A stretch of DNA of 64,000 nt from an uncultured Pelagibacteraceae bacterium (GTDB lineage Bacteria; Pseudomonadota; Alphaproteobacteria; Pelagibacterales; Pelagibacteraceae). The notes under the pieces were generated by a model. The model was not told the DNA's origin, did not search any database, and saw only the letters and a list, made by a program, of their open reading frames with translations. Location: NCBI GenBank assembly GCA_902568875.1, contig CACFSG010000001.1, forward strand, positions 44,374 to 108,373, given 5' to 3'. Shown piece by piece: positions 2,282 to 28,800 of the stretch (within the stretch, counting starts at the first letter, position 1; each line of letters starts with the position of its first letter). A program made the translations under genes and the position numbers.

Positions 2282-2548
2282 ATGTTGCATATTAAATGTC
2301 CACACTGCGGATTAAGATCACAAAATGAATTTTCATATGGTGGAGATGCAACAGTTAAAAGGCCAGAACTAAACAAAGAAGTTTCAGATCAAGATTGGGA
2401 TAATTTTGTTTATTTACGTAAAAGTCCAAGAGGAAAACATTTAGAATTATGGCAACACATTTCTGGATGCAGACAATGGATTAAAGTTGAAAGGGATACT
2501 TTAACTCACGAAATATTTAAAACATTAAAAGCAAACGAAGAAGTATAA
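2282..2548 (+). CDS. soxD: Sarcosine oxidase subunit delta
   Basis: 88 aa, zinc-binding CPHCG motif, operon position between soxB and soxA. Confidence 0.95.
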   Translation: MLHIKCPHCGLRSQNEFSYGGDATVKRPELNKEVSDQDWDNFVYLRKSPRGKHLELWQHISGCRQWIKVERDTLTHEIFKTLKANEEV

Positions 2549-2550
2549 AA

Positions 2551-5547
2551 ATGTCTGAAAACTTTAGATTAGATAAAGGTGGATTAATAAATAGAAATAA
2601 AAAAATTTCATTTAATTTTAATGGTAAAAAATATTTTGGTTATGAAGGTGATACTTTAGCTTCAGCCTTAATTGCAAATGGAGTTCATTTAGTTGGCAGA
2701 AGTTTTAAATACCATAGGCCTAGAGGTTTTTTTGGAGCAGGCGTAGATGAACCTTATGCAATAGTTCAAATGAATAGAAATAATGAAGTTGATCCCAACG
2801 TAAGAGCAACAGAACAGGATTTATTTGAAGGTTTAGAAGCAAAAAGTGTAAATTGTTGGCCAAATGTAGATTTTGATATTGGTGCAATAAATAATTTTTT
2901 AAATAAATTTTTTCCCGCAGGTTTTTACTATAAAACTTTTATGTGGCCCAAAAGCTTTTGGTATAAGGTTTATGAGCCAATAATTAGAAAAGCAGCAGGT
3001 TTTGGAGCTGCTTCAATTAAACATGATAAAGAAAGATATGAACATAAATACGAATATTGTGATCTATTAATTACAGGATCAGGTCCTTCTGGTTTAGCGA
3101 GCGCATATGCTGCTGCTCAAAATGGAGCAAAAGTAATTTTAGCTGAAGACAAATCTAGGTTTGGTGGAAGTCTTCTTACTAGTGAAGTAACAATTGGAAA
3201 TCAAAGTGGGCAAGAATGGGCAGAAAAAATAATATCTGAACTTAAATTAATGCCGAATGTAGTTGTGAAAAATAGATCTCAAGTTTTTGGCTATTACGAT
3301 CACAATATGCTTGTTATGTCTGAGAGAATTAGCGATCATTTACCTAAAACAAAAAAATATAGTCCTAAACAAAGACTTTGGTACATACGTGCAAAAGAAG
3401 TTATTATTTCGTCTGGATCAATAGAAAGACCTTTAGTTTTTGGAAATAATGATACTCCAGGTGTTATGCTTTCTTCAGCAGCTAAAGAATATTTAAAAAT
3501 TTATGGAGTTTTAGTTGGAAAAAAACCATTAATATTTACAAATAATGATAGTGGATATGAAACTGCAATAGAATTTAAGAAAAATGGAATTGATCCTATA
3601 GTTTTAGACACAAGAAAAAATCCTAATTCAGAAATTATAAAAGAAGCTAAAGACTTAAATATAAACATAAAGTTTTCATATGTTGTTGTAGCAGCCAAAG
3701 GTTATAAAAAAGTTAAGTCCGCAGATATTGCTAAAATATCAGAGGATAAAAAAAATATAAGTAATATTGAAAATATACAATGTGATTGTATTTGTGTCTC
3801 TGGATTTTGGACACCAACAATTCATCTGGCTTCACAATCAGGAAATAAAACTAAATTCAATGAAAAAATAGATGCATTTATACCAAGTCAATCGAAACAA
3901 AAAGAAACAACTCTTGGAGCAGCTAATGGGATTTTTACATTAGAAGAAACATTAAAAACATCTTTTAAAAAAGGAAGTGAGTTATCAAAGCAAATAACAA
4001 AAGAAGATAATAAAGTTTCAGTTCCTACAGTTGTTGAGAAAAAATCTTCCAATCATGATAAATTTTGGTGTGTACCATTACCAGAAGGTAAAAATTATAA
4101 AAGATTTTTAGACTTTCAAAATGATGTTGCTGTTTCTGATATACAGCTTGCTTTACGAGAAGGTTATAGATCAATAGAACATGTTAAAAGATATACAACA
4201 TTAGGAATGGCTACTGATCAAGGTAAGACGAGTAATCTTAATGGATTACAAATGGTTTCAGATGTTGAAAATAAAGTTGTGCCTCAAGTAGGCCATACTA
4301 CATTTAGACCACCTTACACACCAGTTTCAATAGGAGCTATTGTTGGAAGAGAAATTGGAAAACATTCTAAACCAACTAGAAAATCGCCAATGCATTATTG
4401 GCATGAAAAAAATAATGCAGTATTTGTCGATGCTGGTGTTTGGTTGCGTCCAAGATATTACAAACAAGGAAATGAAAATTTATTTGAAGCATCGAAAAGA
4501 GAAGCAAAAAATGTAAGACAAAATGTTGGAGTATGCGATGTAACTACTTTAGGTAAAATTGATATTAAAGGACCTGATTCAGCAGAATTTTTAAATAGAG
4601 TTTATACAAATGCTTGGCTTAAGCTACCAGTTGGAAAAGCAAGATATGGTGTAATGTTAAGAGAAGATGGAATTGTAATGGATGACGGGACAACTACTAG
4701 AATTTCGGAAAATCATTATCACATGACAACTACTACTGCTCAGGCAGCAAACGTACTGTCACATCTAGAATATTATTTACAATTAGTGTGGCCTGAGCTG
4801 AATGTAAATGTAGTTTCGTCTACAGAACAGTGGGCAGGCGCTGCAATAGCTGGACCAAATTCAAGAAATTTACTAAAAAAATTATTTCCAGATTTAAATG
4901 TTTCAAACGAAGGTTTGCCATTTATGGGTTATATGGAAGGTAATTTGTTTGGTGTTAATGCAAAAATTTACAGAATTTCATTTTCTGGTGAACTCGCTTA
5001 TGAAGTAAATGTGGAATCTGATCATGGTAATTATATGTGGGAAAAAATAATGGAGGTTGGAAGAGAGTTTAATATTCAACCATACGGAACGGAGGCATTA
5101 TCAACATTAAGAATTGAAATGGGACACGTTGCTGGATCTGAATTAGATGGACGTACAATTCCATATGATAATTCACTAGACGGATTAGTTAGCAAAAAGA
5201 AAGATTTTATTGGAAAAAGATCTTTAAGCAAAACAGCTTATATAACTAAAGATAGACAGAAAGTAGTCGGTGTTATTCCATTAGATAAAAAAACGAGCAT
5301 CCCAGAAGGATCGTATATAGTTAAAGATGCAAAAGCGAAACTTCCAAACCCTAAATTAGGTCATGTATCCGCATCATGTTGGAGCGTTGAGTATGATAAT
5401 CCATTTTCTCTTGCAATAATTAAAGATGGAAAAAATATGATTGGACAAAAACTTTTTGCAATGTCTCCTTTAAAAAACAAAATAATACCTGTTGAAATAG
5501 TATCATCTCATTATGTTGATCCTAAAGGAGAAAGAGTGAGATCATGA
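2551..5547 (+). CDS. soxA: Sarcosine oxidase subunit alpha (GcvT-like C-terminal domain)
   Basis: 998 aa, N-terminal 2Fe-2S-like/FAD domains (GSGPSGLASAYAAAQNGA), C-terminal aminomethyltransferase domain. Confidence 0.95.
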   Translation: MSENFRLDKGGLINRNKKISFNFNGKKYFGYEGDTLASALIANGVHLVGRSFKYHRPRGFFGAGVDEPYAIVQMNRNNEVDPNVRATEQDLFEGLEAKSVNCWPNVDFDIGAINNFLNKFFPAGFYYKTFMWPKSFWYKVYEPIIRKAAGFGAASIKHDKERYEHKYEYCDLLITGSGPSGLASAYAAAQNGAKVILAEDKSRFGGSLLTSEVTIGNQSGQEWAEKIISELKLMPNVVVKNRSQVFGYYDHNMLVMSERISDHLPKTKKYSPKQRLWYIRAKEVIISSGSIERPLVFGNNDTPGVMLSSAAKEYLKIYGVLVGKKPLIFTNNDSGYETAIEFKKNGIDPIVLDTRKNPNSEIIKEAKDLNINIKFSYVVVAAKGYKKVKSADIAKISEDKKNISNIENIQCDCICVSGFWTPTIHLASQSGNKTKFNEKIDAFIPSQSKQKETTLGAANGIFTLEETLKTSFKKGSELSKQITKEDNKVSVPTVVEKKSSNHDKFWCVPLPEGKNYKRFLDFQNDVAVSDIQLALREGYRSIEHVKRYTTLGMATDQGKTSNLNGLQMVSDVENKVVPQVGHTTFRPPYTPVSIGAIVGREIGKHSKPTRKSPMHYWHEKNNAVFVDAGVWLRPRYYKQGNENLFEASKREAKNVRQNVGVCDVTTLGKIDIKGPDSAEFLNRVYTNAWLKLPVGKARYGVMLREDGIVMDDGTTTRISENHYHMTTTTAQAANVLSHLEYYLQLVWPELNVNVVSSTEQWAGAAIAGPNSRNLLKKLFPDLNVSNEGLPFMGYMEGNLFGVNAKIYRISFSGELAYEVNVESDHGNYMWEKIMEVGREFNIQPYGTEALSTLRIEMGHVAGSELDGRTIPYDNSLDGLVSKKKDFIGKRSLSKTAYITKDRQKVVGVIPLDKKTSIPEGSYIVKDAKAKLPNPKLGHVSASCWSVEYDNPFSLAIIKDGKNMIGQKLFAMSPLKNKIIPVEIVSSHYVDPKGERVRS

Positions 5548-6131
5548 CATCTGTATCAGCATTAAACTATATTCATAAAACAGGTCTTTTTGGAAATCAT
5601 GAAAATAAAAATAAAGAAAATTTAATAAAAATTTCAGAAATTAAAAATTTACTTATTGTTCAAATAGTTCAGTACAAAAATTCTAAAGTTTTATTTGAAA
5701 ATATTGATATTGATACTTTAAAGTTAAAAAATGAACCATTAAATGTAGTTAATAATAATAATACAAGAATTTTATGGAATGGTCCAAAAAATTGGCTTTT
5801 AGTATCAACTAAAAAAAATTTGTTAAAAAATATTACAGAAGTTTTTAAAGAAACAGACTTTGCTGTAACTGACCTATCTCATTCACGAGCTATAATTGAA
5901 TTAGAAGGTAAAGATCTCAAAGAAGTTTTAAAAAAAGGATGTCCATTTAATTTTAATATTTTAGAAAAAAACAATTCAATAAACTCTACGTTTAACAGCA
6001 TAGCATTTACAGTAGATATGTTAGATGATAAGCCTGAAAAAATTAGATTATTTGCTCTTAGAAGTTTTGGAGAGTCTTTATATCATTCAATTACAGATGC
6101 CTCTTTAGAATTTGGTTATCTAGGAAATTAA
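5544..6131 (+). CDS. soxG: Sarcosine oxidase subunit gamma
   Basis: 195 aa, overlaps the soxA stop, conserved operon position. Confidence 0.88.
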   Translation: MTSVSALNYIHKTGLFGNHENKNKENLIKISEIKNLLIVQIVQYKNSKVLFENIDIDTLKLKNEPLNVVNNNNTRILWNGPKNWLLVSTKKNLLKNITEVFKETDFAVTDLSHSRAIIELEGKDLKEVLKKGCPFNFNILEKNNSINSTFNSIAFTVDMLDDKPEKIRLFALRSFGESLYHSITDASLEFGYLGN

Positions 6132-11231: not shown

Positions 11232-12197
11232 ATGAAATTTAGAATAGACAACCTTCAATACTGCAATTGGTCTAGAAAAATTTTTGAAATTAATAGAGAA
11301 GCAGGTCTTGATGCAGTTCATACAACAATTGTATACCATGAAGATTTTGATGAATTATTAAATGAAATAAAAAAATGGGAAAAATTGTTTAAAGATAATT
11401 CAGATTTAATTTTTTTAGGAAAAAGTTTTAAAGATATTGAAAAAGCAAATATTGAGAAAAAAACTGCTATTTTTTTTGGTTTTCAAAATTGTTCTCCAAT
11501 AGAGGATGATATTAATTTAGTTGAAAAAGTTCATGAGCTTGGTTGTAGGTTTATGCAACTTACTTATAATAATCAATCTTTATTGGCAACTGGTTGTTAT
11601 GAAAAAGTTGACAGTGGTGTAACTAATTTTGGTCGTGAAGTTATAAAAGAAATGAATAGAGTTGGTATAGTAGTTGACATGTCTCACTCAGCAGAAAAAA
11701 GTACTTTTGATGCCATAGAAATAAGTGAAAAACCTATTGCAATAACTCATGCAAACCCATCATTTTGGTATAATGTAAAAAGAAATAAATCATCTGATTT
11801 ATTAAAAAGTTTAAGCGATAGTGGAGGTATTTTGGGATTATCACTTTATCCTCATCACTTAAAAGATGGTACAAATTGTACTCTTGATAGTTTTTGTGAG
11901 ATGATAGCTAAAACTGCAGAAATTATAAATGTAAATAAAATTGGAATTGGTTCTGACCTTTGTTTAAATCAACCAGATGAAGTTGTAGAATGGATGAGAA
12001 ATGGAACTTGGTCTAAAAGTAAAAATTATGGCGAAGGTTCAAAAAATAAACCTGGTTTTCCAAAACAACCTGATTGGTTTAAGGACGCAAGGGGATTTGT
12101 AAATTTAGAAAGAGGATTAAAAAAAGTAGGTTTTTCAGATACCGAGATTAAAGGGATACTTGGTAACAATTGGTTTAATTTTTATAAATCTATTTAA
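11232..12197 (+). CDS. Membrane dipeptidase (peptidase M19) family protein
   Basis: Renal-dipeptidase-like GCRFMQLTYNNQS, VDMSHSAEKSTFDAIEIS.PIAITHANP, IGIGSDL. Confidence 0.88.
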   Translation: MKFRIDNLQYCNWSRKIFEINREAGLDAVHTTIVYHEDFDELLNEIKKWEKLFKDNSDLIFLGKSFKDIEKANIEKKTAIFFGFQNCSPIEDDINLVEKVHELGCRFMQLTYNNQSLLATGCYEKVDSGVTNFGREVIKEMNRVGIVVDMSHSAEKSTFDAIEISEKPIAITHANPSFWYNVKRNKSSDLLKSLSDSGGILGLSLYPHHLKDGTNCTLDSFCEMIAKTAEIINVNKIGIGSDLCLNQPDEVVEWMRNGTWSKSKNYGEGSKNKPGFPKQPDWFKDARGFVNLERGLKKVGFSDTEIKGILGNNWFNFYKSI

Positions 12198-12199
12198 AA

Positions 12200-13861
12200 A
12201 TGAATATAGAGTTACGAGATCCAAATATAATTATGAAATTATCGAGATTGGGTTCATTCCATCAATCCAAGTTATCATTTTTAAGAAGCTTTTTAAAAGA
12301 GTTTAAAGATTGGGATTATAATAGAGATTTATTTGATTTAGATGATAATGGATTTGGAGTAGCTGTTTACTCTTTTAAAAAGAAAGAAAGAGTTTATTCA
12401 TTAATTTGTTTTGCTAATAAAATTAATGATGATGAAAGATCAGATAGAGTAATTGCTACCAAATGGGATGCAGCTTTTACATTACATGATGGTGTACCAA
12501 GCAAACAAGATATTGAAAGATTAAAAAACGAAGTACCAAAGCAAGAAATTGGTAGATTGTCTTATAAAGAACTGACTTTATCAAGAGCAAATAAATCAGT
12601 GAGAGTATTTAATCATGTTATTGAAAGCCTAAGCAATGGAACTCAGCCTAATTTAAATTTATTAGACAGAGTAGGTTATCTTTATAGAACAACTGCAGTT
12701 TATGGTTCTGGTAAATTTGGATTGGCAGATCGTTTTAGAATAAAAAATAGAGATGAAATAAATGGTCCTTTTAGACTAGAAATGATGTTGGTTTATTTAG
12801 TTAGACAATTTACTTTTGATCAAGTTAATCATGTAGCAAAATATAGGAATCCAAAAAAAGCAGTTAAATTAGATCCTAAAATTTGTAAAAATCTTGGAAT
12901 AGGAAATTCAACTGGTTTAGGTATGGCACCATTTATTGTTAATCACCCCACTTTACTCAACAATTGGATACTTTGTAGGGAAACAGCTTTAAAAAAAATT
13001 AGAGAAATAAAAAAGGTTGAAACTCAAGACAGTGATTTATTTAAAAATTGTGTAAGAAACTCTATTAAAAATATTACTAGTTGGAATACTGAAAGTGATT
13101 TTCAGCTTAGGAAAATTAAATCTTTATTAGAAGATGTAAGAAAATTTTTAGATTTTATAGATAATAAATTTAATTTTGAAATAGACTATCCATTTAATGA
13201 AATTTATTTTTGGTTGGAGAAAGAAACTTGTGAAGAATGTATCGAATATATTGTTTCAATTATGATGGAACCTTATGGAAAAATAATAGAACCACTTGTA
13301 AAAGAAATGAGTTCTGATGAAGAAAAATACTTTAACATTCCAACAAATAGAACAGTCGAGGAATTAAGAACTATTATAAAAAAAAAATACCCAAATGTTC
13401 TTACTATTAACTTTGATAAAAAAGAAAATTATAAAAAATTTTGGTTTATTTCAAAAAATAAAGAAGAGCCTAGATTAGCAGATCGTTTTAAAGAACAAGG
13501 AGCAGACTTAGAGCAACCTCTTGCTATCGCAAGAGATGTTAAAAAATTATATGATAAATTATTGGAATCAAAAAATAGTTTAACGATTGATAAATTTTTA
13601 ATTGAAAATTCAGACTTAAGACATGTTGTAAGAAGAGCTTTTATTATTGAAAAATTTCCTTATTCAGAAATTCAAGATAATACGATTAGTGAAAATATTA
13701 TTCCTATAGATATGCTGAGATTAAAATTATCTTTTTTTGGAGCATTAAAATTTGACCCAAGATCCGATAAGTGGCTTCGAATCAATATGTTTCAGGGTGC
13801 GCCCTTACCTAATGAATTAAAAGATTATGATGAACAGTGGGTTTATAAATCTCATTCTTAA
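12200..13861 (+). CDS. Conserved-looking hypothetical protein, 553 aa
   Basis: Long intact ORF 2 bp after the dipeptidase gene and 3 bp before the DUF3726-like gene; no family motif recognised. Confidence 0.75.
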   Translation: MNIELRDPNIIMKLSRLGSFHQSKLSFLRSFLKEFKDWDYNRDLFDLDDNGFGVAVYSFKKKERVYSLICFANKINDDERSDRVIATKWDAAFTLHDGVPSKQDIERLKNEVPKQEIGRLSYKELTLSRANKSVRVFNHVIESLSNGTQPNLNLLDRVGYLYRTTAVYGSGKFGLADRFRIKNRDEINGPFRLEMMLVYLVRQFTFDQVNHVAKYRNPKKAVKLDPKICKNLGIGNSTGLGMAPFIVNHPTLLNNWILCRETALKKIREIKKVETQDSDLFKNCVRNSIKNITSWNTESDFQLRKIKSLLEDVRKFLDFIDNKFNFEIDYPFNEIYFWLEKETCEECIEYIVSIMMEPYGKIIEPLVKEMSSDEEKYFNIPTNRTVEELRTIIKKKYPNVLTINFDKKENYKKFWFISKNKEEPRLADRFKEQGADLEQPLAIARDVKKLYDKLLESKNSLTIDKFLIENSDLRHVVRRAFIIEKFPYSEIQDNTISENIIPIDMLRLKLSFFGALKFDPRSDKWLRINMFQGAPLPNELKDYDEQWVYKSHS

Positions 13862-13864
13862 ATT

Positions 13865-14476
13865 ATGAAATCTTTAAGTGAAATAGAAACAACATCAAAA
13901 AGAGCTAGTCGTGCAGTAGGATTTTCATGGGGGATTGCAGAAGAAGTTGGAAAATGTATTAGATTATTAGAGCTATTTGGTTTTCCAGGAATTAAAAATT
14001 TAAATCAATATTATCAAAACAAAAATAAAGAAAATTTTGAAAATCTAAAATTGATTAATCAAAATAACAAATCAAATAAATCAGCTTTTTGTCCTATTAT
14101 CCTTGGAGTAAGTTTTTTGGATCAAATTAAAACACTTGAACCTTTAAAAAAATGCACATTTCAGGGAATAGCATACCCACTTTTATTGTTACCCTTTTTA
14201 AGTAGAAGCTCAGAAATAATAGGAAAAAAAATTTTATTTAAGTTTGATGAAAATGAATTTTTATTAAATTTTAATGTTAACATTTATTCAAATTTTTTAA
14301 AAAAAGAATTTCCATTAATAGCCAAAAATGTTGAAGTAATTTTTTTAGAAAATAAAGATACTTTTAATGACATAGAATGGAAAAATCTTTATAAACTCTC
14401 TGAAGATACTTTTGTCGAAGAAAGTGATAGTTTAAAACAAGGTGCCGCAGGAGCTGGATTGACTGATAATGACTGA
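13865..14476 (+). CDS. DUF3726-like protein
   Basis: N-terminus SLSEIETTSKRASRAVGFSWGIAEEVGKCIRLLELFG resembles DUF3726. Confidence 0.65.
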   Translation: MKSLSEIETTSKRASRAVGFSWGIAEEVGKCIRLLELFGFPGIKNLNQYYQNKNKENFENLKLINQNNKSNKSAFCPIILGVSFLDQIKTLEPLKKCTFQGIAYPLLLLPFLSRSSEIIGKKILFKFDENEFLLNFNVNIYSNFLKKEFPLIAKNVEVIFLENKDTFNDIEWKNLYKLSEDTFVEESDSLKQGAAGAGLTDND

Positions 14477-15199: not shown

Positions 15200-16558
15200 T
15201 TATCCTTTTACAACTTCTCTTGTATTAGCATTGAAAGATTCTTTAAATGGAATATCAACTACAACAGCGTCTACAGGTGTTCCTGGTTTGTCTGAGTATT
15301 TTTCAGGTAAATGAACTTTGTATTTAGTTCCAGTTTTACCTTTTGGAAATCCATTAGAATTTAAAGTTCCATCAAACGGCACATATCCCATTGCTATATT
15401 TGTTTTTTTTTCAGGATGGTACCAAGGGGAAGTTATAAAACCAACGGGATCTCCTCCATCAGCATTCGAAATTAACCAAAAATCCGGGGCATAGTCCTCT
15501 ATTGGTTTTCCACCTAGTTCAAGACCAACTAATTGGAGTTTATAAGGTTTTTTCCCTGCTTTAATTTCTGTATGCATTTTTTCTAAAGCCGCTTTACCAA
15601 CATAATCAGCTGTTTTATTCCATTCACCTTTTCCAGATAAAGAAACTTGATAACCTAAATTACATTGAAAAGGATTGTGTTGTTGATCCATATCTTGTCC
15701 CCATGAAAGAATTCCTGCTTGAATTCTTCTATGGTGTGCAGGAGCAATAACCATTAAATTATGTTTTTTTCCAGCTTTAAGAACAGCATTCCACATATCA
15801 TCAGCATATAAAGTTGCATTTCTTAAATATATTTCATAACCAGCTTCACCTGAGAAACCTGATTGAGAAATAACACAACTTCTTCCAGCAACTTTAACCT
15901 CAGCCAAACCATAAAAAGGCATGTTTTCTAAATCAATTTGATCACCTAATAAATCTTTCATTAGTGCTTTTGATTTAGGTCCTTGAATTTGCACTGGACA
16001 AGCATCAATTTCCTCTACAGTACAATTAAATCTGCCATCAGCATTAACACCTTGTAGATACATACCAATATCAGAGTCTGATAAAGAAAACCAAAACTCA
16101 TCTTTTGAAATTCTAAGAAGAATTGGATCATTTAAAACTCCACCATAAGCATTACATAAAATTACATATCTAGCTCTCATAGGAGAAATTTTTGTTGCAT
16201 CTCTTGTAATTACATAATCTGTAAACTTTTCTGCATCAGGACCTTTAACTCTTATTTGTCTTTCAACAGCCACGTTCCACATAGTAACATGGTTAACAAT
16301 TGCATCATATTCTACCATTGCGCCACCATCTTCTGGTTTTACGTATCCTCTTGGATGGTAAATACGATTGTAAACTGTTGCTCTCCAACAACCTGCTTGC
16401 ATTGATAAATGCCAGTAAGGAGATTTTCTTACTCTTGTTGAAATTAACATTTCAACTTTAGTAGGTCCGCTTTGTCTTAAGTTATATGGAACTTCACGAT
16501 CTGATTGATCAACTGAAGTTGCGTGTTTTAGTTTAGTATAGTCAAATTCATTAGACAT
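15200..16558 (-). CDS. GcvT/DmdA-family aminomethyltransferase-like protein (putative THF-dependent demethylase)
   Basis: 452 aa; WNVAVERQIRVKGPDAEKFTDYVITRDATKISPMRARYVILCNAYGGVLNDPILLRI resembles the DmdA/GcvT fold; translationally coupled to a MetF-like gene. Confidence 0.75.
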   Translation of the reverse strand: MSNEFDYTKLKHATSVDQSDREVPYNLRQSGPTKVEMLISTRVRKSPYWHLSMQAGCWRATVYNRIYHPRGYVKPEDGGAMVEYDAIVNHVTMWNVAVERQIRVKGPDAEKFTDYVITRDATKISPMRARYVILCNAYGGVLNDPILLRISKDEFWFSLSDSDIGMYLQGVNADGRFNCTVEEIDACPVQIQGPKSKALMKDLLGDQIDLENMPFYGLAEVKVAGRSCVISQSGFSGEAGYEIYLRNATLYADDMWNAVLKAGKKHNLMVIAPAHHRRIQAGILSWGQDMDQQHNPFQCNLGYQVSLSGKGEWNKTADYVGKAALEKMHTEIKAGKKPYKLQLVGLELGGKPIEDYAPDFWLISNADGGDPVGFITSPWYHPEKKTNIAMGYVPFDGTLNSNGFPKGKTGTKYKVHLPEKYSDKPGTPVDAVVVDIPFKESFNANTREVVKG

Positions 16559-17279
16559 ATTTGTTCTCCATCAACCACTTGTTTGTTTCCTTCAAGCCGC
16601 CGAATGTATAAATGTGGAAAAAATCAGTATGCGATTTAATTTTTCCAATTAAATCATTAGGGTCTTTAGGTTTCAATAAATCTAATGCCTTAGTAAAGTT
16701 AGATTTAAGAAAGTTTAAGGAATTTTTTGCACCAACAATATTAGCAAATTTAATTAAGCTAGATATTTTTAGAGGCCCAGTAATTCCCACATGAACTGGT
16801 ATGCTTTGTTTAGAGATAAAATCTATAATAGGCTGCGGATCTAATAACCATTGCGTTACAATGTAGTCAGCGTAAGGCTTTTTATCTATCATAGCTTTTT
16901 CTAAATCTGAATCGGATATATCAGGACTCCCCTCCGGGTGTCCAGCGATTCCTATCTTCATCTTCTCAAAATAACCTGTTTCTAAAAGTTGAAATGAGCT
17001 GTCAAATTTTCCAACTGGTTCTCGACCTCCACCAATTACTAAAACTTGTTTAACTCCTCCATCTTTACATCGAGAAACGTAATCTTTTAGCTCTTTTTCA
17101 TCACTTATTGATCTTGCTGGAAAATGGGGAACAGGATTAAAGCCTTTCTTAATAAGCTCAACTGCTTGTTGAGCTGTCTCTTTATAATCTCCACCTGGAA
17201 GCATTGTAATATAAACATCACTTACCTTTGGGACTGTTTCAAGGTCAGTTTGTGGACTAATTTCCAAAGAAAAATTCAT
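16551..17279 (-). CDS. Methylenetetrahydrofolate reductase (MetF-like)
   Basis: 242 aa; VYITMLPGGDY, PVPHFPARSI, QVLVIGGGREP, GIAGHPEGSPDIS. Confidence 0.75.
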   Translation of the reverse strand: MNFSLEISPQTDLETVPKVSDVYITMLPGGDYKETAQQAVELIKKGFNPVPHFPARSISDEKELKDYVSRCKDGGVKQVLVIGGGREPVGKFDSSFQLLETGYFEKMKIGIAGHPEGSPDISDSDLEKAMIDKKPYADYIVTQWLLDPQPIIDFISKQSIPVHVGITGPLKISSLIKFANIVGAKNSLNFLKSNFTKALDLLKPKDPNDLIGKIKSHTDFFHIYTFGGLKETNKWLMENKYV

Positions 17280-17299
17280 TTTTTAGATCATTATCCTTT

Positions 17300-18574
17300 T
17301 TGAAAATAGTGTCAAAGAAATTCAACAAGAACTCCAAACGAAATTTGTTGCCAAAAATAATGCTCATGATAATTTTTTTTGTGGATCAAAATCATAAAAA
17401 TAAAACCCTCTCAGAAATTTTAGACATTCAAAAATTAAAAGATGTAGATAAACAAATAGAGGCTGCAAATGGCCTTCCAAATGAGTGCTATATAAGTGAA
17501 GATTATTTAGCTTATGAAAGAGATAAGATTTTTTGTGACAAATGGACTGTCGTAGGAGTTGGAAGTTCAATTCCAAATGCCGGTGATGCAAAACCCTATA
17601 ATCTGCTCGGGATTCCTCTGATAATTATTAGAAGTAAAGATATGAAGATTCGAGTATTTCATAATGTTTGCAGTCATAGAGGTTTTAAACTTTTAGACAA
17701 ACCATGTAATTTAAAAAATGTTATTAGATGCCCATACCACTCTTGGTCTTATGACTTTGCAGGAAATCTTGTTGCAACACCTCATATTGGAGGACTTGAT
17801 ATTCATCAGTTTGATAAATTTGATAAAAATAAAAGTAATTTAAAAGAAGTTAAAACTAAAGTTTGGATGGATATTATTTTTGTGAATATTAATTCAAATG
17901 AAATCGATTTTAATAAATATATTAAACCTCTTGAACAAAGATGGTCTAAATTCATTAATAATGATGATCATAATTTATTAGTTCATTCAAATGATTACGG
18001 TTATTTTAATTTAGAAGTAAAATGTAATTGGAAATTTGCTATTGAAAATTATTGTGAAAGTTATCATTTACCAACAATCCATCCTGAATTAAATAAAGTT
18101 TCAAATATTAATGATCATTATCATATTCAAGGTTTACCAAATAGATTTGCTGGTCAAGGAAGTAAAAAGTATGAGCAACCAGTAAAAGGAAATAAAAAAT
18201 TTAATACTTTTTCTAATTGGGAAAAAAGTATGTTGAAAAATTCAGAGTATATTGCGCTGTTTCCAAATGTAATGATAGGCTTACATATAGATCATTTTTA
18301 TGTTTTTTGGTTAGAACCTCTTGGAATGGATAAAACCAAGGAACATATGCAAATATATTATGTTGGTGATGAAAGTGCTAATGGTGAAGAATTAAAAGAA
18401 TTAAGAAAAGAAAATTCAAAATTTTGGAAAAATGTCATGCTAGAAGATGTAAGTGCTATTGAAGGTATGCAAGATGGACGACATTCTCCAGTTTATAATG
18501 GAGGAAACTTTTCTCCTGCAATGGATCAACCAACTCATCAATTTCATAAATGGGTTGCTAACAGTTTAATATAA
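17300..18574 (+). CDS. Rieske [2Fe-2S] oxygenase alpha subunit (choline monooxygenase / ring-hydroxylating type)
   Basis: CSHRGFKL...CPYHSWSYDFAGNL Rieske ligands; ENYCESYHLPTIHPEL mononuclear-iron motif. The track start is TTG; the true start may be 17360 or 17381. Confidence 0.88.
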   Translation: MKIVSKKFNKNSKRNLLPKIMLMIIFFVDQNHKNKTLSEILDIQKLKDVDKQIEAANGLPNECYISEDYLAYERDKIFCDKWTVVGVGSSIPNAGDAKPYNLLGIPLIIIRSKDMKIRVFHNVCSHRGFKLLDKPCNLKNVIRCPYHSWSYDFAGNLVATPHIGGLDIHQFDKFDKNKSNLKEVKTKVWMDIIFVNINSNEIDFNKYIKPLEQRWSKFINNDDHNLLVHSNDYGYFNLEVKCNWKFAIENYCESYHLPTIHPELNKVSNINDHYHIQGLPNRFAGQGSKKYEQPVKGNKKFNTFSNWEKSMLKNSEYIALFPNVMIGLHIDHFYVFWLEPLGMDKTKEHMQIYYVGDESANGEELKELRKENSKFWKNVMLEDVSAIEGMQDGRHSPVYNGGNFSPAMDQPTHQFHKWVANSLI

Positions 18575-18575
18575 A

Positions 18576-18983
18576 ATGAAAATAATTTTAATAATGGGAT
18601 TACCCGGTGCAGGCAAAACAACTTTGGCAAATGAATTATCCAAATTAATTAAATGTAAAAGATTAAATGCAGATGAAATCAGAAAAGCTGCTAATGATTG
18701 GGATTTTTCAGAAGAAGGCAGAACAAGACAAGCAAAAAGAATGTCAGATGAGGCATTAAAATTAAAAAATGGAGGCAATAATGTTATTGCTGATTTTATT
18801 TGTCCAACACCAGAAGCAAGAAATTTGTTTCCTGCAGATTATATTATTTGGGTAGATACAATTGAAGAAGGAAGGTTTGATGATACTAACAAGATGTTTG
18901 TAAAACCCGATAAGTATGACTTTCATGTTACTACGCAAGATGCTAAAAACTGGGCACCAAAAATATATAAGGAGATAAAATAA
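18576..18983 (+). CDS. Small APS-kinase-like P-loop kinase
   Basis: Walker A GLPGAGKTT; LNADEIRKAANDWDFSEEGRTRQAKRM; VIADFICPTPEAR. Confidence 0.75.
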   Translation: MKIILIMGLPGAGKTTLANELSKLIKCKRLNADEIRKAANDWDFSEEGRTRQAKRMSDEALKLKNGGNNVIADFICPTPEARNLFPADYIIWVDTIEEGRFDDTNKMFVKPDKYDFHVTTQDAKNWAPKIYKEIK

Positions 18984-19363
18984 TGGCTTACGAATGGGAT
19001 GATAAAAAACCAACTGCTCAAATGTTAGGAAGATGGCAACCTTTTCACGATGGTCATTATACTTTATTCAAAGAAATAATTAAAAAGACAGGCCAAGTTT
19101 GTATTCAAATTAGAGATGTTCAGGGTGTTGATGATAATCCGTTTGATTTTGAAACTGTAAAAAAGAATATTGAAGATAGGCTTAATCCAGAATTTGAAGG
19201 GCGTTTTAAAATCATGTTAGTGCCAAATATTACCAACATTTGTTATGGAAGGGGAGTTGGTTATAAAATTGAAGAGATAGTATTACCTGAGGAAATACAA
19301 AAAATTTCAGCCACTAAAATTAGAGCTAAGATGAGAGAAGAAGGTAAGCTAAAAAAATCATAA
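18983..19363 (+). CDS. Small nucleotidylyltransferase (HxGH / cytidylyltransferase-like)
   Basis: GRWQPFHDGHYTLFKEII signature and C-terminal ISATKIRAKMREEG; shares 1 bp with the upstream kinase gene. Confidence 0.75.
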   Translation: MAYEWDDKKPTAQMLGRWQPFHDGHYTLFKEIIKKTGQVCIQIRDVQGVDDNPFDFETVKKNIEDRLNPEFEGRFKIMLVPNITNICYGRGVGYKIEEIVLPEEIQKISATKIRAKMREEGKLKKS

Positions 19364-20137
19364 ATGAATATTAAAGTAGTAAATCAACAAAAAGATATTG
19401 TTAGAGTTATTATAAATGATCCTAAAACTTATAATTCTCTATCTACAAAAAATTTAAATGATTTAATTAGAGTATTCCAAAAATTAGATAAAGATCAAAA
19501 AGTTAAAGTAATAATCCTTGAAGGAGCTGGAAAAGGATTTAGTGCAGGACATAATTTAAAAGAAGTTAAAGGATTAAAAAAAAGAAAAAAATATCAAAAA
19601 CTATTTAATCTTTGTTCAAAATTAATGCTTCAAATTGTTGAAGGAAGAAAACCTGTAATTGCTAAAGTTCATGGAGCAGCTTATGCAGCAGGATGTCAAT
19701 TAGTTGCAAGTTGTGATTTAGCGTACAGTACAAAAGATGCTTTGTTTGCAACACCTGGAGTTAATATTGGATTATTTTGCAGTACTCCAATGGTAGCAGT
19801 AAGTAGAAAAATTAATAGAAAGTCCATGATGAAAATGTTGTTAACTGGAGAACCTATTAAAGCAAATTATGCAAAAGAAATAGGGTTAATAAATGATTGT
19901 TATTCAAAATTAAAATTAAATAATGAAGTTTTAAAAATAGCTAAAAAAATTGCATCAAAATCAAATTTAACAATAAAAATTGGAAAACAAGCTTTTTATA
20001 AACAATTAGAAATGCCATTAAGAAAAGCTTACGCTTATACGAGCAAAATGATGACAATTAATATGATGGCAATGGATGCCAAAGAAGGTATTTCAGCATT
20101 TTTAGAGAAAAGAAAACCTAAATGGAAAAATAAATAA
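19364..20137 (+). CDS. Enoyl-CoA hydratase/isomerase family protein
   Basis: GAGKGFSAGHNLKE; KVHGAAYAAGCQLVASCDLAYS. Confidence 0.9.
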   Translation: MNIKVVNQQKDIVRVIINDPKTYNSLSTKNLNDLIRVFQKLDKDQKVKVIILEGAGKGFSAGHNLKEVKGLKKRKKYQKLFNLCSKLMLQIVEGRKPVIAKVHGAAYAAGCQLVASCDLAYSTKDALFATPGVNIGLFCSTPMVAVSRKINRKSMMKMLLTGEPIKANYAKEIGLINDCYSKLKLNNEVLKIAKKIASKSNLTIKIGKQAFYKQLEMPLRKAYAYTSKMMTINMMAMDAKEGISAFLEKRKPKWKNK

Positions 20138-23024: not shown

Positions 23025-25457
23025 ATGAAATCTAAAGCAAAAGTAGTAGTAGTTGGTGGAGGAGTGGTAGGCGTTAGTGCTCTTTATCATTTAGCTAAAA
23101 AAGGATGGTCTGATGTAGTTTTAATAGAACGAAAAGAATTAACTTCAGGTTCAACCTGGCATGCAGCGGGATTACTTCCATTATTTAATATGAGTTATTC
23201 TGTAGGACAACTTCATAAATATGCTGTTGATCTTTATAAAAAATTAGAAGAAGAAACGGGAAAGAATGTTGGTTTTAGTGTGGTATCAAACATTAGACTA
23301 GCAAGCACTAAAGATAGAATGGAAGAATATCATCAGTATGCTGGTGTAGCACAAACAATAGGAGTTAAAGTTAATTTTTTAAAACCCGAACAAGTAAAAG
23401 AAATTTGGCCTTTGTGTAATACCGAAGGTTTAATTGGAGCAATTCAACATCCTGAAGATGGATATATTCAGCCTGCAGATTTAACACAAGCGCTTGCTAC
23501 AGGAGCAAGAAATCACGGTGCAGAAATTTACAGAAACACAACAGTCGTAGGAATTAAACAAACAAACAATGGTTGGGTTGTAGAAACTGATAAAGGAACA
23601 ATAGAATGTGAACATGTAATCTCATGTTCAGGAAATTTTGCTAGACAAACTGGTAAAATGGTTGGATTAGAAATTCCAGTTATTCCTGTTGAACATCAAT
23701 ATATTGTGACAGAGCCTCATCCAGAGATCGTTAAAAGAAAAAAAGAAGGCAAACCAGAAATGGGAGTGCTTAGAGATAGTGATACCCAATGGTATATGAG
23801 AGAAGAAGCTGGAGGTTTAATATTAGGACCTTATGAAAAAGGCGCTCCATGTTGTTATGTAGATGGACCTTCTAAAGATTCAGAATACGAATTATTTCAA
23901 GAAGATTTAGAAAGACTCGCGCCACATATTGAAGGAGCTATTCACAGAGTTCCTGCTTTTGGAGAAGTAGGGGTTAAAAAAGTTTATAATGGTGCAATTT
24001 GTTATACACCTGATGGTAATCCAATAGTTGGACCTGCTTGGGGATTAAAAAATTTTTGGATTAACGAAGGTCATAGTTTTGGAATTACTGCCGCAGGTGG
24101 AGCTGGATGGCAACTTGCAGAATGGATTATAGATGGCGAACCTACAATAGATATGCTTGGTGTTGAACCAAGAAGATACGGAGACTATGCATCAAAATCT
24201 TATTTAATAGAAAAAAATGAAGAGGCTTATAGAAATGTGTTTACCATACATTATCCTGATGAAGAAAGAGAGGCAGCAAGACCTTTAAGACAGGCACCTT
24301 GTTATGATAGATTAAAAAATTTAGGTGCTGTATTTGGACAAAAATTTGGTTGGGAAAGAGCTAATTTTTTTGCAACAGATGGAATGGAACAAAAAGATGA
24401 TTGGTCTTTTAGAAGATCTAAATGGTTTAAAGCTATTGAGAAAGAATGTAAAAATGTAAAAGAAAATGTAGGTCTTTTAGACATGACTGCTTTTGCAAAA
24501 TGTAGAATTAAGGGTCCAAAAGCAGAAGAATTTTTAGATTATTTAGTTGCAAATAAACTACCAAAAAAAATTGGTAGAGTAAATTTATGTCATGCGCTTA
24601 ATACAAAAGGAGGAGTTCATTCTGAATTTACAATAATGAAAGAAGCTGAAGATAGTTTTTATTTAGTTTCAGCAGGAGCTTTTCAAAGATTAGATCATGA
24701 TTGGATACAAAAATGGATGCCGAAGGATGGTTCAGTACAATTTGAAAATATTACAAATTCAGTTGGTGTATTAGTTGTTGCTGGTCCAAAAGCTAGAAAA
24801 TTAATGCAAAAAGTTTCTAAAGATGATTTTTCTAATGAAAAATTTAAATGGTTAAGCTCTAAGAAAGTTGATATAGGGCATGCACCTTGTACTGCTATTA
24901 GAGTAAATTTTGTAGGAGAGCTAGGATGGGAAATACACCATCCTATTGAGTACCAAAATCATATATTTGATAAATTAATGGAACATGGAAAAGATTTAGG
25001 TTTAAAACCTTTTGGAATTAGAGCAATGAATAGTTTAAGAGTTGAAAAATCTTACAAACTAGTTGGCACTGAATTATCTATAGAATATTCACCTTATGAG
25101 TCTGGTCTAGATAGATTTATTCATCCAAATAAAGGAAATTTTATAGGCTTAGAAGCATTAAATAAATGGAGAGAAAAAGGTTTCCAAAACAAACTAGTAA
25201 CAATGGAAGTTCACGATGTCACTGATGCTGATGTATTAGGAAATAATCCAATTTATAAAGACGAGAAAGTAGTTGGAAGAGCAACTGGAGGAGATTTTGG
25301 TTTTAGATTAAATAAGTCAATAGCCATTGGGATGGTTAAACCTGAACTTGCGACAACTGGACAAAAATTAAAAATTGATATTCTAGGAAAAATGCATGAT
25401 GCTACAATTTTGGATGAAAGTCCTTACGATCCTGAGAATAAATTATTAAGAGCATAA
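23025..25457 (+). CDS. Dimethylglycine/sarcosine dehydrogenase-like FAD oxidoreductase with C-terminal GcvT domain
   Basis: 810 aa; [44 protein letters not shown]; GcvT C-terminus; followed by etfBA and ETF-QO. Confidence 0.88.
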
Positions 25458-26206
25458 TGAAAATATTAGTCGCTGTTAAAAGAGTTATTGATTATAACGT
25501 TCAAGTTAGAGTTAAAGAGGATGGAACTGGTGTAGTTACCGACAATGTAAAGATGTCAACTAACCCACCTGATGATAATGCTATTGAAGAAGCTGTAAAA
25601 ATTAAAGAAGCGGGTAAAGCAAAAGAAATAGTTGCGGTTACTGTTGGTGAAGAAAAAGCTCAAGAGACAGTAAGAAAAGCTTTAGCCGTTGGTGCTGATA
25701 GAGGAATTCATGTTAAAGTTGATGGAATAGTTGAACCGTTAGCTGTATCTAAAATTTTACAAAAAATTGTAGATAAAGAAAAACCTGATTTAATTTTTAT
25801 GGGTAAGCAAGCCATTGATGATGATTGTAATCAAACAGGACAAATGCTTGCAGCACTTTTAAATTGGCCACAAGCAACTTTTGCCTCAAAAATTGAAGTT
25901 AAAGATAAATCTTTAGAAGTTACAAGAGAAGTAGACGAGGGTTTGGAAACAATTGAAGTTAATATTCCAGCTATAGTTACTTGTGATTTAAGATTAAATG
26001 AACCTAGATACGCATCTTTACCAAATATAATGAAAGCTAAAAAGAAACCTATCGAACAAATTAATTCATCAGATTTGGGAATTGATACAAAACCAAGAAT
26101 AGAGCAAATTAAAGTTGAAGAACCACCTAAAAGAAAAGCAGGAATTAAAGTAGCAAATGTTGCTGAATTAGTTGAAAAATTAAAAAATGAGGCAAAAGTA
26201 ATATAA
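25457..26206 (+). CDS. etfB: Electron transfer flavoprotein beta subunit
   Basis: [32 protein letters not shown]. Confidence 0.96.
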
Positions 26207-27159
26207 TGTCAGCATTATTAATAGCAGAGCATAATAATAAAGAAGTAAAACCTTTTACTTTAAATGCAATAACAGCCGCATCTCAAATAGATGAGGATTT
26301 ACATGTACTTGTTATAGGTAATAAATCAGAAGAAGTAGCAAAATCTATGTCTCAAGTACCAAATGTGAAAAAAGTTATACATATAGATAATGAAATATAT
26401 GAAAATTTTTTAGCAGAAAATTTTACTTCTGTAATAGTTAAACAAGCTGAAAATTATTCACATGTAGTTTGTTCAGCAAATACATTTGGTAAAAACTTAA
26501 TGCCAAGAGTAGCTGCATTATTAGATACTTCCCAAGTAAGTGATATAATAAAAGTTATATCTGCAGATACATTTTTAAGACCAATTTATGCTGGAAATGC
26601 TTTTGCTACAGTAAAAAGTTCTGATTCTAAAAAATGCATAACCATTAGACCAACTTCATTTGATCCTGCTGCAACCTCAGGCGGATCTGCAGAAATTGTT
26701 AAAGCTGACGTAGGAGAAGCGAGCACTCTTATAAAGTTTATTAAAAGAGAAGAAATTAAATCAGATAGACCTGAACTTGGAACAGCAAGAGTAGTTATAT
26801 CTGGTGGAAGAGGAATGGGGAGTGGAGAAAATTTTAAACTTATTACAGAAATTGCTGATAAATTAAATGCAGCCATTGGAGCATCACGTGCAGCAGTCGA
26901 TGCTGGATATATTACCAATGATCATCAAGTTGGACAAACTGGAAAAGTAGTAGTTCCAGATTTGTACATTGCGGTTGGAATATCAGGCGCAATACAACAT
27001 CTAGCCGGAATGAAGGAAAGTAAAGTCATTGTTGCAATAAATAAAGATGGTGAAGCTCCTATTTTTAGTGTTGCAGATTATGGTTTAGAAGCAGATTTAT
27101 TTGAAGCACTTCCTCAATTCTTAGAAGAACTAAGTAAATTAAACACTATACAAAAATAA
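26206..27159 (+). CDS. etfA: Electron transfer flavoprotein alpha subunit
   Basis: C-terminal [38 protein letters not shown]. Confidence 0.96.
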
Positions 27160-27180
27160 CAAATACTGTAAAAAATTAAT

Positions 27181-28800
27181 ATGTCCAGAGAAGTGATGGA
27201 ATACGATGTAGTAATCGTAGGTGGCGGACCATCAGGGCTTTCAACTGCAATTAAATTAAAGCAGTTAAATCCAGATATTAATGTCTGCCTTTTAGAAAAA
27301 GCATCAGAAATTGGTGCTCATATATTGTCAGGTAATGTTTTTGAAACAAGAGCCTTAGATGAATTGTTCCCTAATTGGAAAGAACTAAACGCTCCAATAA
27401 AAACTAAAGTAAATAAAGAAAAATTTTTATTCTTAGGAAAGACAAAATCATTAAGTTGGCCTACTTGGTTACTTCCAAAAGTTCAACATAATCATAATAA
27501 TTATATTATTAGTCTTGCAAATTTATGTAGATGGTTAGCTGAACAAGCTGAAGCGTTAGGAGTAGAAATATTTCCAGGTTTTCCTGCAAGTGAAGTTTTA
27601 TATAACGAAGATGGTTCGGTTAAAGGAATAGTTACACAAGATATGGGTTTAGATAAAGAGGGTAATAAAAAGGATAGTTTTGAGTCTGGAATGGAACTTC
27701 ATGGAAAAGTTACTGTATTTGCTGAAGGTTGTAGAGGCCATTTAGGAAAAGAATTAATTAAAAAATTTGAATTAGACAAAGGTAAGAGTCCTCAACAATA
27801 TGGAATAGGATTTAAAGAAATTTGGGAAATTAAAGAAGAAAAACATGAAGAAGGTCTTGTAATGCATACAGCAGGTTGGCCACTTGATAAAAAAACTTAC
27901 GGTGGAAGTTTTGTATACCATGCTGAAAATAAGCAAGTATTTCTTGGTTATGTTATTGGATTAGACTATAAAAATCCTCATTTATCACCATTTGATGAAT
28001 TTCAAAGATTTAAAACTCATCCATCTATAAAAGTAATTCTTGAAGGTGGTAAAAGAATTTCTTACGGAGCTAGAGCTCTTATTGAAGGAGGTTTACAAAG
28101 TTTGCCTCAAATGTATATGCCAGGAGCATTGCTAGTAGGTTGTGATGCAGGAACATTAAATATGCCAAAAATAAAAGGATCTCATACCGCAATGAAAAGT
28201 GGGATGATTGCAGCCGAAACTATTGTTGATCATTTAAAAGAAAATAAAAATTTATCTTCTTATGAAGATAAATTTAAAAAAAGCTGGGTATATAAAGAAT
28301 TGTATGCTGCAAGGAATGTAAAACCTAGTTTTAGTTGGGGTTTAATTTTAGGAATAATTTTTACTGGTATAGATCAAATTTTATTTAGAGGAAAATTACC
28401 TTTTACTTTAAAACACAAACATGCAGATCATGAAACTTTAAAACCTGCAAATGAGATGCCAAAAATTGATTATCCTAAACCAGACAATGTAATAACTTTT
28501 GATAAAACTAGTTCAGTATATTTAACAGGAACAAATCACGCAGATAACCAGCCTGTTCATTTAAAATTAAAAGATAAAGATTTACCGATAAAATATACTT
28601 TAGAAAAATTTGCTGAGCCTGCACAAAGATATTGTCCAGTTGGAGTATATGAAATTCAAAATGAAAATAATGTAGAAAAATTTGTCATAAATTCTCAAAA
28701 TTGTATTCACTGTAAAACTTGTGATATAAAAGAACCTTCACAAAATATTACTTGGGTAACTCCAGAAGGTGGAGGTGGGCCTAAATATGGAAATATGTAA
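27181..28800 (+). CDS. Electron transfer flavoprotein-ubiquinone oxidoreductase
   Basis: 539 aa, YDVVIVGGGPSGLSTAIKLKQ, C-terminal 4Fe-4S NCIHCKTCDIKEPSQNITW. Confidence 0.96.
   Translation: MSREVMEYDVVIVGGGPSGLSTAIKLKQLNPDINVCLLEKASEIGAHILSGNVFETRALDELFPNWKELNAPIKTKVNKEKFLFLGKTKSLSWPTWLLPKVQHNHNNYIISLANLCRWLAEQAEALGVEIFPGFPASEVLYNEDGSVKGIVTQDMGLDKEGNKKDSFESGMELHGKVTVFAEGCRGHLGKELIKKFELDKGKSPQQYGIGFKEIWEIKEEKHEEGLVMHTAGWPLDKKTYGGSFVYHAENKQVFLGYVIGLDYKNPHLSPFDEFQRFKTHPSIKVILEGGKRISYGARALIEGGLQSLPQMYMPGALLVGCDAGTLNMPKIKGSHTAMKSGMIAAETIVDHLKENKNLSSYEDKFKKSWVYKELYAARNVKPSFSWGLILGIIFTGIDQILFRGKLPFTLKHKHADHETLKPANEMPKIDYPKPDNVITFDKTSSVYLTGTNHADNQPVHLKLKDKDLPIKYTLEKFAEPAQRYCPVGVYEIQNENNVEKFVINSQNCIHCKTCDIKEPSQNITWVTPEGGGGPKYGNM

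What the first reader, a model, noticed from the sequence alone, without database searches (positions are those of the whole stretch)
15200..19363. Divergent demethylation-like module: MetF-like + DmdA-like facing Rieske oxygenase + APS-kinase-like + nucleotidylyltransferase
Seen in sequence: two coupled minus-strand genes (8-bp overlap) and three near-contiguous plus-strand genes sharing a divergent promoter. Inference: a Rieske monooxygenase and a THF methyl acceptor with its own MetF could handle an unknown methylated N-, S- or O-substrate, with the kinase and nucleotidyl transferase activating or conjugating part of it. I know of no described pathway with this gene set, so this is one of the best candidates here for an undescribed system.
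Basis: partly seen in the sequence, partly recalled or inferred. Interest (0 to 1): 0.75.

Follow-up and report, generated by a model that had tools for sequence, protein, structure and literature searches.

The report
SAR11 betaine-type demethylation gene island
The two leftward genes probably strip a methyl group from glycine betaine or a similar compound, the oxygenase beside them is a separable add-on, and the small kinase and transferase belong to a different unit that marine viruses also carry.

Summary
The gene layout is as described, but it is not one five-gene module; three separable units meet here. (1) AMT (GcvT/DmdA-like) + MetF is an overlapping pair in all 31 fetched loci with AMT, already known as SAR11_1265/1264 (PMC3160333, substrate unassigned). 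In haloarchaea, AMT orthologs (50-56% identity) sit with MetF in folate C1 and betaine islands. AMT also neighbours dimethylglycine-dehydrogenase-type genes in haloarchaea and three other alphaproteobacteria, with sarcosine oxidase in two. The same gene types lie elsewhere in this window. Best reading: AMT moves a methyl group from a betaine, most likely glycine betaine, to tetrahydrofolate (THF), and MetF oxidises methyl-THF. (2) The Rieske protein carries the group Va quaternary-ammonium signature (Y229/E231). It occurs in 79 of 198 genomes of the order, within 10 kb of AMT and divergent in 68 of 69 same-contig cases, but unlinked in the second family. (3) Kinase and nucleotidylyltransferase are the split form of a phage family (PHROG 10255), found in hundreds of viral contigs and often fused; they are unlikely to belong to this chemistry. 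The proposed conjugation step is unsupported; demethylation is likely; the substrate is inferred, not shown.

The parts
15200..16558 (-). AMT: GcvT/DmdA-like folate methyltransferase, ortholog of SAR11_1265; proposed betaine:THF methyltransferase
   Evidence: Pfam GCV_T 135.8 bits; DmdA model 230.9 of 410 bits; folate-site E242 and Y244 and N143-D144 kept; 170 of 198 genomes of the order
16551..17279 (-). MetF-like short methylenetetrahydrofolate reductase, ortholog of SAR11_1264; proposed to oxidise methyl-THF
   Evidence: Pfam MTHFR 26.1 bits, cut-off 24; solved MTHFR 7xg9 E 1.1e-33 alone, 1.7e-43 as a profile; adjacent to AMT in 31 of 31 loci
17280..17365 (.). divergent intergenic region (length depends on the true Rieske start)
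   Evidence: promoter scan inconclusive
17366..18574 (+). Rieske oxygenase alpha subunit, quaternary-ammonium type (group Va signature); start uncertain (17360/17366/about 17384)
   Evidence: Pfam Rieske and Ring_hydroxyl_A; CntA best solved match; Y229 and E231 conserved
18576..18983 (+). APS-kinase-like P-loop kinase, N-terminal half of PHROG 10255
   Evidence: probably not part of the demethylation unit
18983..19363 (+). NMNAT-like HxGH nucleotidylyltransferase, C-terminal half of PHROG 10255
   Evidence: probably not part of the demethylation unit
19364..20137 (+). enoyl-CoA hydratase family protein, next gene of the plus-strand run
   Evidence: NCBIfam PRK08139 354 bits, over cut-off
23025..25457 (+). 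dimethylglycine-dehydrogenase-type protein (FAD oxidoreductase + GCV_T); proposed later step
   Evidence: homolog 79% identical next to AMT in G640 (L308) and homologs beside AMT-MetF in Haloarcula and Haladaptatus
25457..28800 (+). electron-transfer flavoprotein genes (25457-26206, 26206-27159) and an ETF-ubiquinone-oxidoreductase-like gene (27181-28800); proposed electron acceptors
   Evidence: names from the sequences, no family search run; same order next to AMT in G640
1025..6131 (+). sarcosine oxidase / N-methylglutamate dehydrogenase-type complex (SoxB 1025-2281, SoxA 2551-5547, SoxG-like 5544-6131)
   Evidence: NCBIfam soxB 671.5 and soxA 1313.6 bits, over cut-offs; homologs beside AMT in G521 and G559
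11232..14476 (+). M19 dipeptidase, 553-aa unknown protein, DUF3726 protein: a linked catabolic trio on the other flank (homarine-type operon from memory)

Best explanation
AMT and MetF form a two-enzyme, cobalamin-free demethylation unit. AMT transfers a methyl group from a methylated onium compound, most likely glycine betaine, to tetrahydrofolate, as DmdA does from DMSP, giving dimethylglycine and 5-methyl-THF. MetF runs in the oxidative direction, 5-methyl-THF to 5,10-methylene-THF, which feeds folate-linked C1 oxidation. Dimethylglycine then goes to the dimethylglycine-dehydrogenase-type enzyme with ETF (window 23025-28800) and to the sarcosine-oxidase-type complex (1025-6131), ending at glycine. 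The Rieske protein is an accessory, exchangeable monooxygenase that attacks a quaternary ammonium compound (choline or another trimethylammonium compound) and may supply the betaine pool. Kinase and nucleotidylyltransferase belong to a separate virus-shared unit. Shown: the genes, their families, conserved residues, coupling and conserved contexts. Inferred: methyl-THF as the AMT product, the direction of MetF, the substrate, and the role of the Rieske protein.
For: AMT-MetF overlap in 31 of 31 loci. A dedicated MetF fits an AMT that makes methyl-THF; per PMC7487153, DmdA makes 5-methyl-THF while GcvT makes 5,10-methylene-THF. SAR11_1264 and 1265 transcripts fall together in stationary phase (PMC5069961). 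AMT orthologs at 50-56% identity in haloarchaea sit with MetF in five of five loci viewed, with BCCT transporters in three, dimethylglycine-dehydrogenase-type genes in three, and folate C1 genes (GlyA, FolD, Fhs or FdhF) in most; ilvA in three. In alphaproteobacteria outside the order: AMT next to the dimethylglycine-dehydrogenase-type gene, ETF pair and ETF-QO (G640); AMT-MetF, that gene and SoxA (G521); that gene, AMT and SoxB/SoxA (G559). Nine of 20 searched genomes with AMT have no BHMT relative, and the six of these read with enough flank keep the dimethylglycine-dehydrogenase-type gene, so another source of dimethylglycine would fit. Rieske: bridging Glu and the Tyr that PMC7948474 ties to choline, carnitine and benzalkonium oxidation; relatives are followed by aldehyde dehydrogenase genes in the annotated loci viewed.
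Against: No activity data. Context is guilt by association; four of seven alphaproteobacterial AMT loci outside the order show no betaine context. The dimethylglycine dehydrogenase and sarcosine oxidase names rest on family-level similarity, and the SoxBA models do not separate sarcosine oxidase from N-methylglutamate dehydrogenase. Sun et al. (PMC3160333) placed a different AMT (SAR11_1303, beside opuA) in betaine use and proposed MMPA for SAR11_1265. In this window AMT and the 23025 gene are 6.5 kb apart on opposite strands. The folate-island genes in archaea would suit any methylated substrate.
Confidence: 0.45

Rival explanations
1. AMT-MetF removes a methyl group from a sulfur compound, for example MMPA in DMSP breakdown, as proposed for SAR11_1265 in 2011.
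For: DmdA is the closest solved relative (3tfh); proposal in PMC3160333; enoyl-CoA hydratase nearby, and SBP56/methanethiol-oxidase-type genes with a ferredoxin gene in some relatives.
Against: DmdA model score 230.9 of 410. MMPA is a thioether, not an onium, so a poor methyl donor for a DmdA-type transfer (chemistry, inference). Haloarchaeal and other alphaproteobacterial contexts hold betaine-type rather than DMSP genes.
Confidence: 0.12
2. AMT-MetF acts on another quaternary ammonium compound (proline betaine, beta-alanine betaine, trigonelline, homarine) and not on glycine betaine.
For: The 11232-14476 trio matches an operon seen in Rhodobacterales, Rhizobiales and Pseudomonas that fits homarine use from memory; many betaines occur in seawater.
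Against: The trio is not with AMT in haloarchaea or family f2; homarine breakdown is reported to run through Mgd (PMC13390433), which would remove the methyl group without AMT.
Confidence: 0.2
3. AMT, MetF and the Rieske protein form one pathway for one substrate: the Rieske protein oxidises choline or a similar compound to a betaine and AMT-MetF demethylates it. (Compatible with the best explanation; adds an obligate role for the Rieske protein.)
For: 68 of 69 same-contig genomes keep them within 10 kb and divergent; a group V type Rieske gene also lies in the AMT-MetF island of Haloarcula marismortui.
Against: Rieske gene in 79 and AMT in 170 of 198 genomes; absent from the same island in Haloarcula hispanica; unlinked in family f2. 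Choline dehydrogenase-like genes do not sort with it clearly.
Confidence: 0.2
4. The arms only share a gene hotspot: osmolyte genes collect next to AMT-MetF without working together.
For: The slot holds different genes in different genomes: BHMT, OpuA, M24, SET, EgtB/EgtD, PhyH.
Against: Most of these still concern methylated nitrogen compounds, and divergent linkage to the Rieske gene is near-complete in the genus.
Confidence: 0.3

Closest known systems
DmdA, DMSP demethylase (GcvT family)
   Same: Fold family, folate-site Glu and Tyr, methyl transfer to THF expected
   Different: Model score 230.9 of 410 bits; about 31% identity to a DmdA of Phaeobacter; 452 vs 369 aa; paired with its own MetF; betaine-type contexts
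SAR11_1265/SAR11_1264 of Pelagibacter HTCC1062 (PMC3160333)
   Same: Same gene pair by family and adjacency (the HTCC1062 sequences themselves were not compared)
   Different: Substrate there speculated to be MMPA; wider contexts here point to betaines
LigM/DesA O-demethylases with a dedicated MetF
   Same: Folate-dependent demethylase in the GcvT superfamily, partner MetF; best solved MetF match 7xg9 (its source organism, Sphingobium SYK-6, is from memory)
   Different: AMT scores 35.7 of 580 (LigM) and 42.6 of 800 (DesA); no aromatic genes nearby
CntA, carnitine monooxygenase, and group Va Rieske oxygenases
   Same: Rieske and 2-His-1-Asp sites, bridging Glu, aromatic residue at CntA Tyr203
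   Different: Cys206/Cys209 pair absent; CntA Tyr295 and Tyr225 positions changed (M328, H251 in the alignment); no FNR-type reductase found
GbcA glycine betaine monooxygenase (group Vb)
   Same: Rieske oxygenase of betaine chemistry; best NCBIfam model (118.6 bits)
   Different: Far below the cut-off of 670; Tyr where Vb enzymes have Asn
PHROG 10255 'kinase' of phages
   Same: Kinase and nucleotidylyltransferase match its N and C halves
   Different: Two overlapping genes in this genome, one protein in many viruses

Membership tests
DmdA | Curated model cut-off (NF009133, 410 bits) | tested here: not met
   230.9 bits
DmdA | Folate-binding Glu and Tyr | tested here: met
   E242, Y244 invariant
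DmdA | DMSP-contact Trp (W171 in the alignment numbering of PMC7487153; W197 of 3tfh by my count) | tested here: inconclusive
   Phe235 in AMT and its orthologs, but the annotated Phaeobacter DmdA in L291 has Tyr, so the site is not diagnostic
DmdA | DMSP demethylase activity | not testable with these tools
   -
MTHFR (MetF) | Pfam PF02219 gathering score | tested here: met
   26.1 of 24 bits; 7xg9 E 1.1e-33
MTHFR (MetF) | Curated equivalog cut-offs (TIGR00676, TIGR00677) | tested here: not met
   27.3 of 293.7 and 29.5 of 310.05 bits
MTHFR (MetF) | Direction of reaction | not testable with these tools
   -
Group V Rieske oxygenase | Rieske CxH...CxxH and 2-His-1-Asp sites | tested here: met
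   C102, H104, C122, H125, H234, H239, D361 invariant
Group V Rieske oxygenase | Bridging Glu (CntA E205) | tested here: met
   E231 invariant (PMC7948474)
Group Va | Aromatic residue at CntA Y203 | tested here: met
   Y229, Phe in L072
Group V Rieske oxygenase | Cys-X-X-Cys pair (only in some members) | tested here: not met
   S232 and L235 (PMC10952381)
GbcA (group Vb) | Curated cut-off; Asn at the Y203 position | tested here: not met
   118.6 of 670 bits; Tyr
CntA/CntB two-component enzyme | Partner FNR-type reductase in the genome | tested here: not met
   No PF00175 match in 10 genomes; controls rang in 10 of 14
APS kinase | Curated model cut-off (TIGR00455) | tested here: not met
   34.6 of 138.7 bits
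NMN adenylyltransferase | Curated model cut-off | tested here: not met
   PRK01153 27.4 of 127 bits
PHROG 10255 | Kinase and transferase halves both match | tested here: met
   Model positions 1-102 and 127-228
Glycine betaine:THF methyltransferase (proposed) | Methyl transfer from glycine betaine to THF | not testable with these tools
   -

The most novel reading that the evidence does not exclude
AMT-MetF is an undescribed cobalamin-free, GcvT-family glycine betaine:THF methyltransferase with a dedicated methyl-THF oxidase, shared by SAR11 bacteria and haloarchaea and independent of BHMT, MtgBCD and GbcAB.
Probability: 0.38. Interest if true: 0.85.

Novelty: new variant of a known kind. Interest (0 to 1): 0.62.

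Why it matters
Glycine betaine is a major marine osmolyte and SAR11 the most abundant marine heterotroph. PMC12478193 proposes that SAR11 demethylates it only through BHMT, yet nine of 20 searched genomes with AMT have no BHMT relative. A folate-dependent betaine demethylase would fill that gap, tie SAR11 to haloarchaea and name a substrate for a gene pair left unassigned since 2011. Separately, a kinase-nucleotidylyltransferase pair shared with hundreds of viral contigs is an open functional question.

Tried and rejected
Single five-gene module: rejected on distribution and on the viral and fused kinase-transferase forms. Structure models: KIN-NT (mean pLDDT 62.5, pTM 0.55; the best PDB matches were APS kinases) and Rieske (pLDDT 49.3, pTM 0.49) were too weak to use; the Rieske model was not searched. 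The Trp-to-Phe argument against DMSP was dropped as diagnostic after a DmdA control showed Tyr. Choline monooxygenase test by presence of BetA and BADH: inconclusive (no match over cut-off). Promoter scan: inconclusive. Homarine pathway paper (Nat Microbiol 2026, cited in PMC13390433) is not held, so gene identities there are from memory. A second viral scan with the fused alignment gave no answer.
Full report
What is there. The window lies in a genome of 854,767 bases in 44 contigs, about 67% complete, whose order I take to be Pelagibacterales (SAR11): relatives found by its Rieske protein are titled Pelagibacteraceae or Pelagibacter in nearly all cases, and the AMT-MetF pair corresponds to SAR11_1265/1264 of PMC3160333. 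The stated genes and the 8-bp overlap are present. The plus-strand run goes on without a gap into an enoyl-CoA hydratase gene, and the Rieske start is uncertain.

Distribution. In 198 genomes of the order, AMT occurs in 170, the Rieske protein in 79, the kinase in 137 and the nucleotidylyltransferase in 151. Of 78 genomes tabulated with the Rieske gene, 69 have AMT listed on the same contig; in 68 the two are within 10 kb, all on opposite strands; the exception is G134 at 96 kb. In family f2 none of the six is linked. Gene order in 40 fetched loci shows a stable side (MetF, AMT, a membrane protein) and a variable slot between MetF and the kinase/transferase/hydratase genes. The slot may hold BHMT, a dimethylglycine-dehydrogenase-type gene, OpuA-type transporter genes, M24 and SET proteins, or EgtB and EgtD; G134 also carries carnitine dehydrogenase, a BKACE-type protein and a gamma-butyrobetaine dioxygenase fragment.

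AMT and MetF. AMT has GCV_T and, below its cut-off, GCV_T_C, scores 230.9 of 410 bits with the DmdA model and keeps the folate-site Glu and Tyr. MetF is a short MTHFR; 7xg9 matches far better than other solved MTHFRs. Sun et al. described the pair without an assigned substrate and guessed MMPA (PMC3160333); transcripts of both fall together in stationary phase (PMC5069961). New here: orthologs at 50-56% identity on haloarchaeal plasmids, with MetF in all five loci viewed. In Haloarcula marismortui pNG700 they lie with two FAD oxidoreductases, a Rieske gene, ilvA, a BCCT transporter, formate-THF ligase and folate synthesis genes; one of the FAD proteins matches the window's 23025 gene over 841 positions at 30% identity. 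H. hispanica has the same island without the Rieske gene. Outside the order, three of seven alphaproteobacterial loci place AMT beside the dimethylglycine-dehydrogenase-type gene, in two of them with sarcosine oxidase subunits. Four show no such context. Together these favour a betaine, and glycine betaine first, but do not prove it.

BHMT. A BHMT of the human type (1lt7, E 2.3e-44) accompanies the Rieske gene in many relatives. A relative was found in 11 of 23 searched genomes; nine of the 20 that carry AMT had none. PMC12478193 proposes BHMT as the sole SAR11 route.

Rieske protein. The metal sites, the bridging Glu (E231) and the Tyr (Y229) of CntA Y203/E205 are conserved, also in relatives at about 42% identity. 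PMC7948474 uses that Tyr to separate group Va (carnitine, choline, benzalkonium) from Vb (glycine betaine, stachydrine), which has Asn there. The Cys pair is absent; it occurs only in some group V enzymes. In the HMMER alignment, CntA Y203, F258 and N270 align with Y229, F282 and N301, while Y225 and Y295 align with H251 and M328; this pairwise mapping, done by hand and with a gap near N270, is unchecked by structure. No FNR-type reductase was found in ten SAR11 genomes, so the electron donor is unknown. In Pseudomonas MPC6, Oceanisphaera, Cupriavidus, Leisingera and Phaeobacter LSS9 an aldehyde dehydrogenase gene lies beside the relative.

Kinase and nucleotidylyltransferase. In five phages both halves hit the same place; in the two I opened, both hits fall in one annotated CDS. 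PHROG 10255 spans both. The viral scan reported 338 relatives of the transferase, of which 80 were kept; among those 80 many have kinase and transferase in one open frame, and AMT, MetF, Rieske and hydratase gave no hit. Neighbours such as ribonucleotide reductase, DNA primase and D12 methyltransferase support viral origin for the contigs checked. The transferase was not seen in 298 other genomes of the phylum. Function open.

Other flank. The trio at 11232-14476 recurs as LysR, aldehyde dehydrogenase, M19 dipeptidase, the 553-aa protein, DUF3726 and often an Ldh-family gene in Rhodobacterales and Rhizobiales, and partly in Pseudomonas, where M24 and the Rieske relative are also present. This resembles the homarine operon I recall; PMC13390433 confirms that such a report exists and that Mgd takes part, not the gene identities.

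Verdict. Demethylation by AMT-MetF is likely; the substrate is an inference at about 0.45; the Rieske gene is a linked but separable partner; the kinase-transferase pair is a different unit.

Noticed in passing
window 18576-19363; L185-L264, L102, L103: Kinase-nucleotidylyltransferase pair shared with viruses (338 relatives reported, up to 94% identity), fused in many of the 80 loci kept and, by shared open frame, in hosts G090, G165 and G174.
   Followed up: partly
window 11232-14476: M19 dipeptidase, 553-aa unknown protein and DUF3726: part of a conserved operon elsewhere, possibly homarine breakdown.
   Followed up: partly
L291 (Phaeobacter inhibens pPGA1_262): The same operon lies next to dmdA, an AMP-binding gene, dmdD and an acyl-CoA dehydrogenase gene.
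   Followed up: no
window 43715-44815: Dioxygenase scoring best with 2-trimethylaminoethylphosphonate dioxygenase TmpA (340.1 of 400 bits).
   Followed up: no
L062 2612-3985, L077 4114-4500: SBP56/methanethiol-oxidase-type gene (L062) and a 2Fe-2S ferredoxin gene (L077); the same two families lie next to each other downstream of the hydratase gene in four relatives.
   Followed up: no
L077 9277-10239, L088 4801-6024: EgtD-type and EgtB-type ergothioneine genes occupy the variable slot in two relatives.
   Followed up: no
L098: G134 carries BHMT, OpuA, Rieske and carnitine genes together about 96 kb from AMT.
   Followed up: partly
G145, G186, G170, G056, G147, G088: The Rieske match contains one in-frame TGA; its position was not located.
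   Followed up: no
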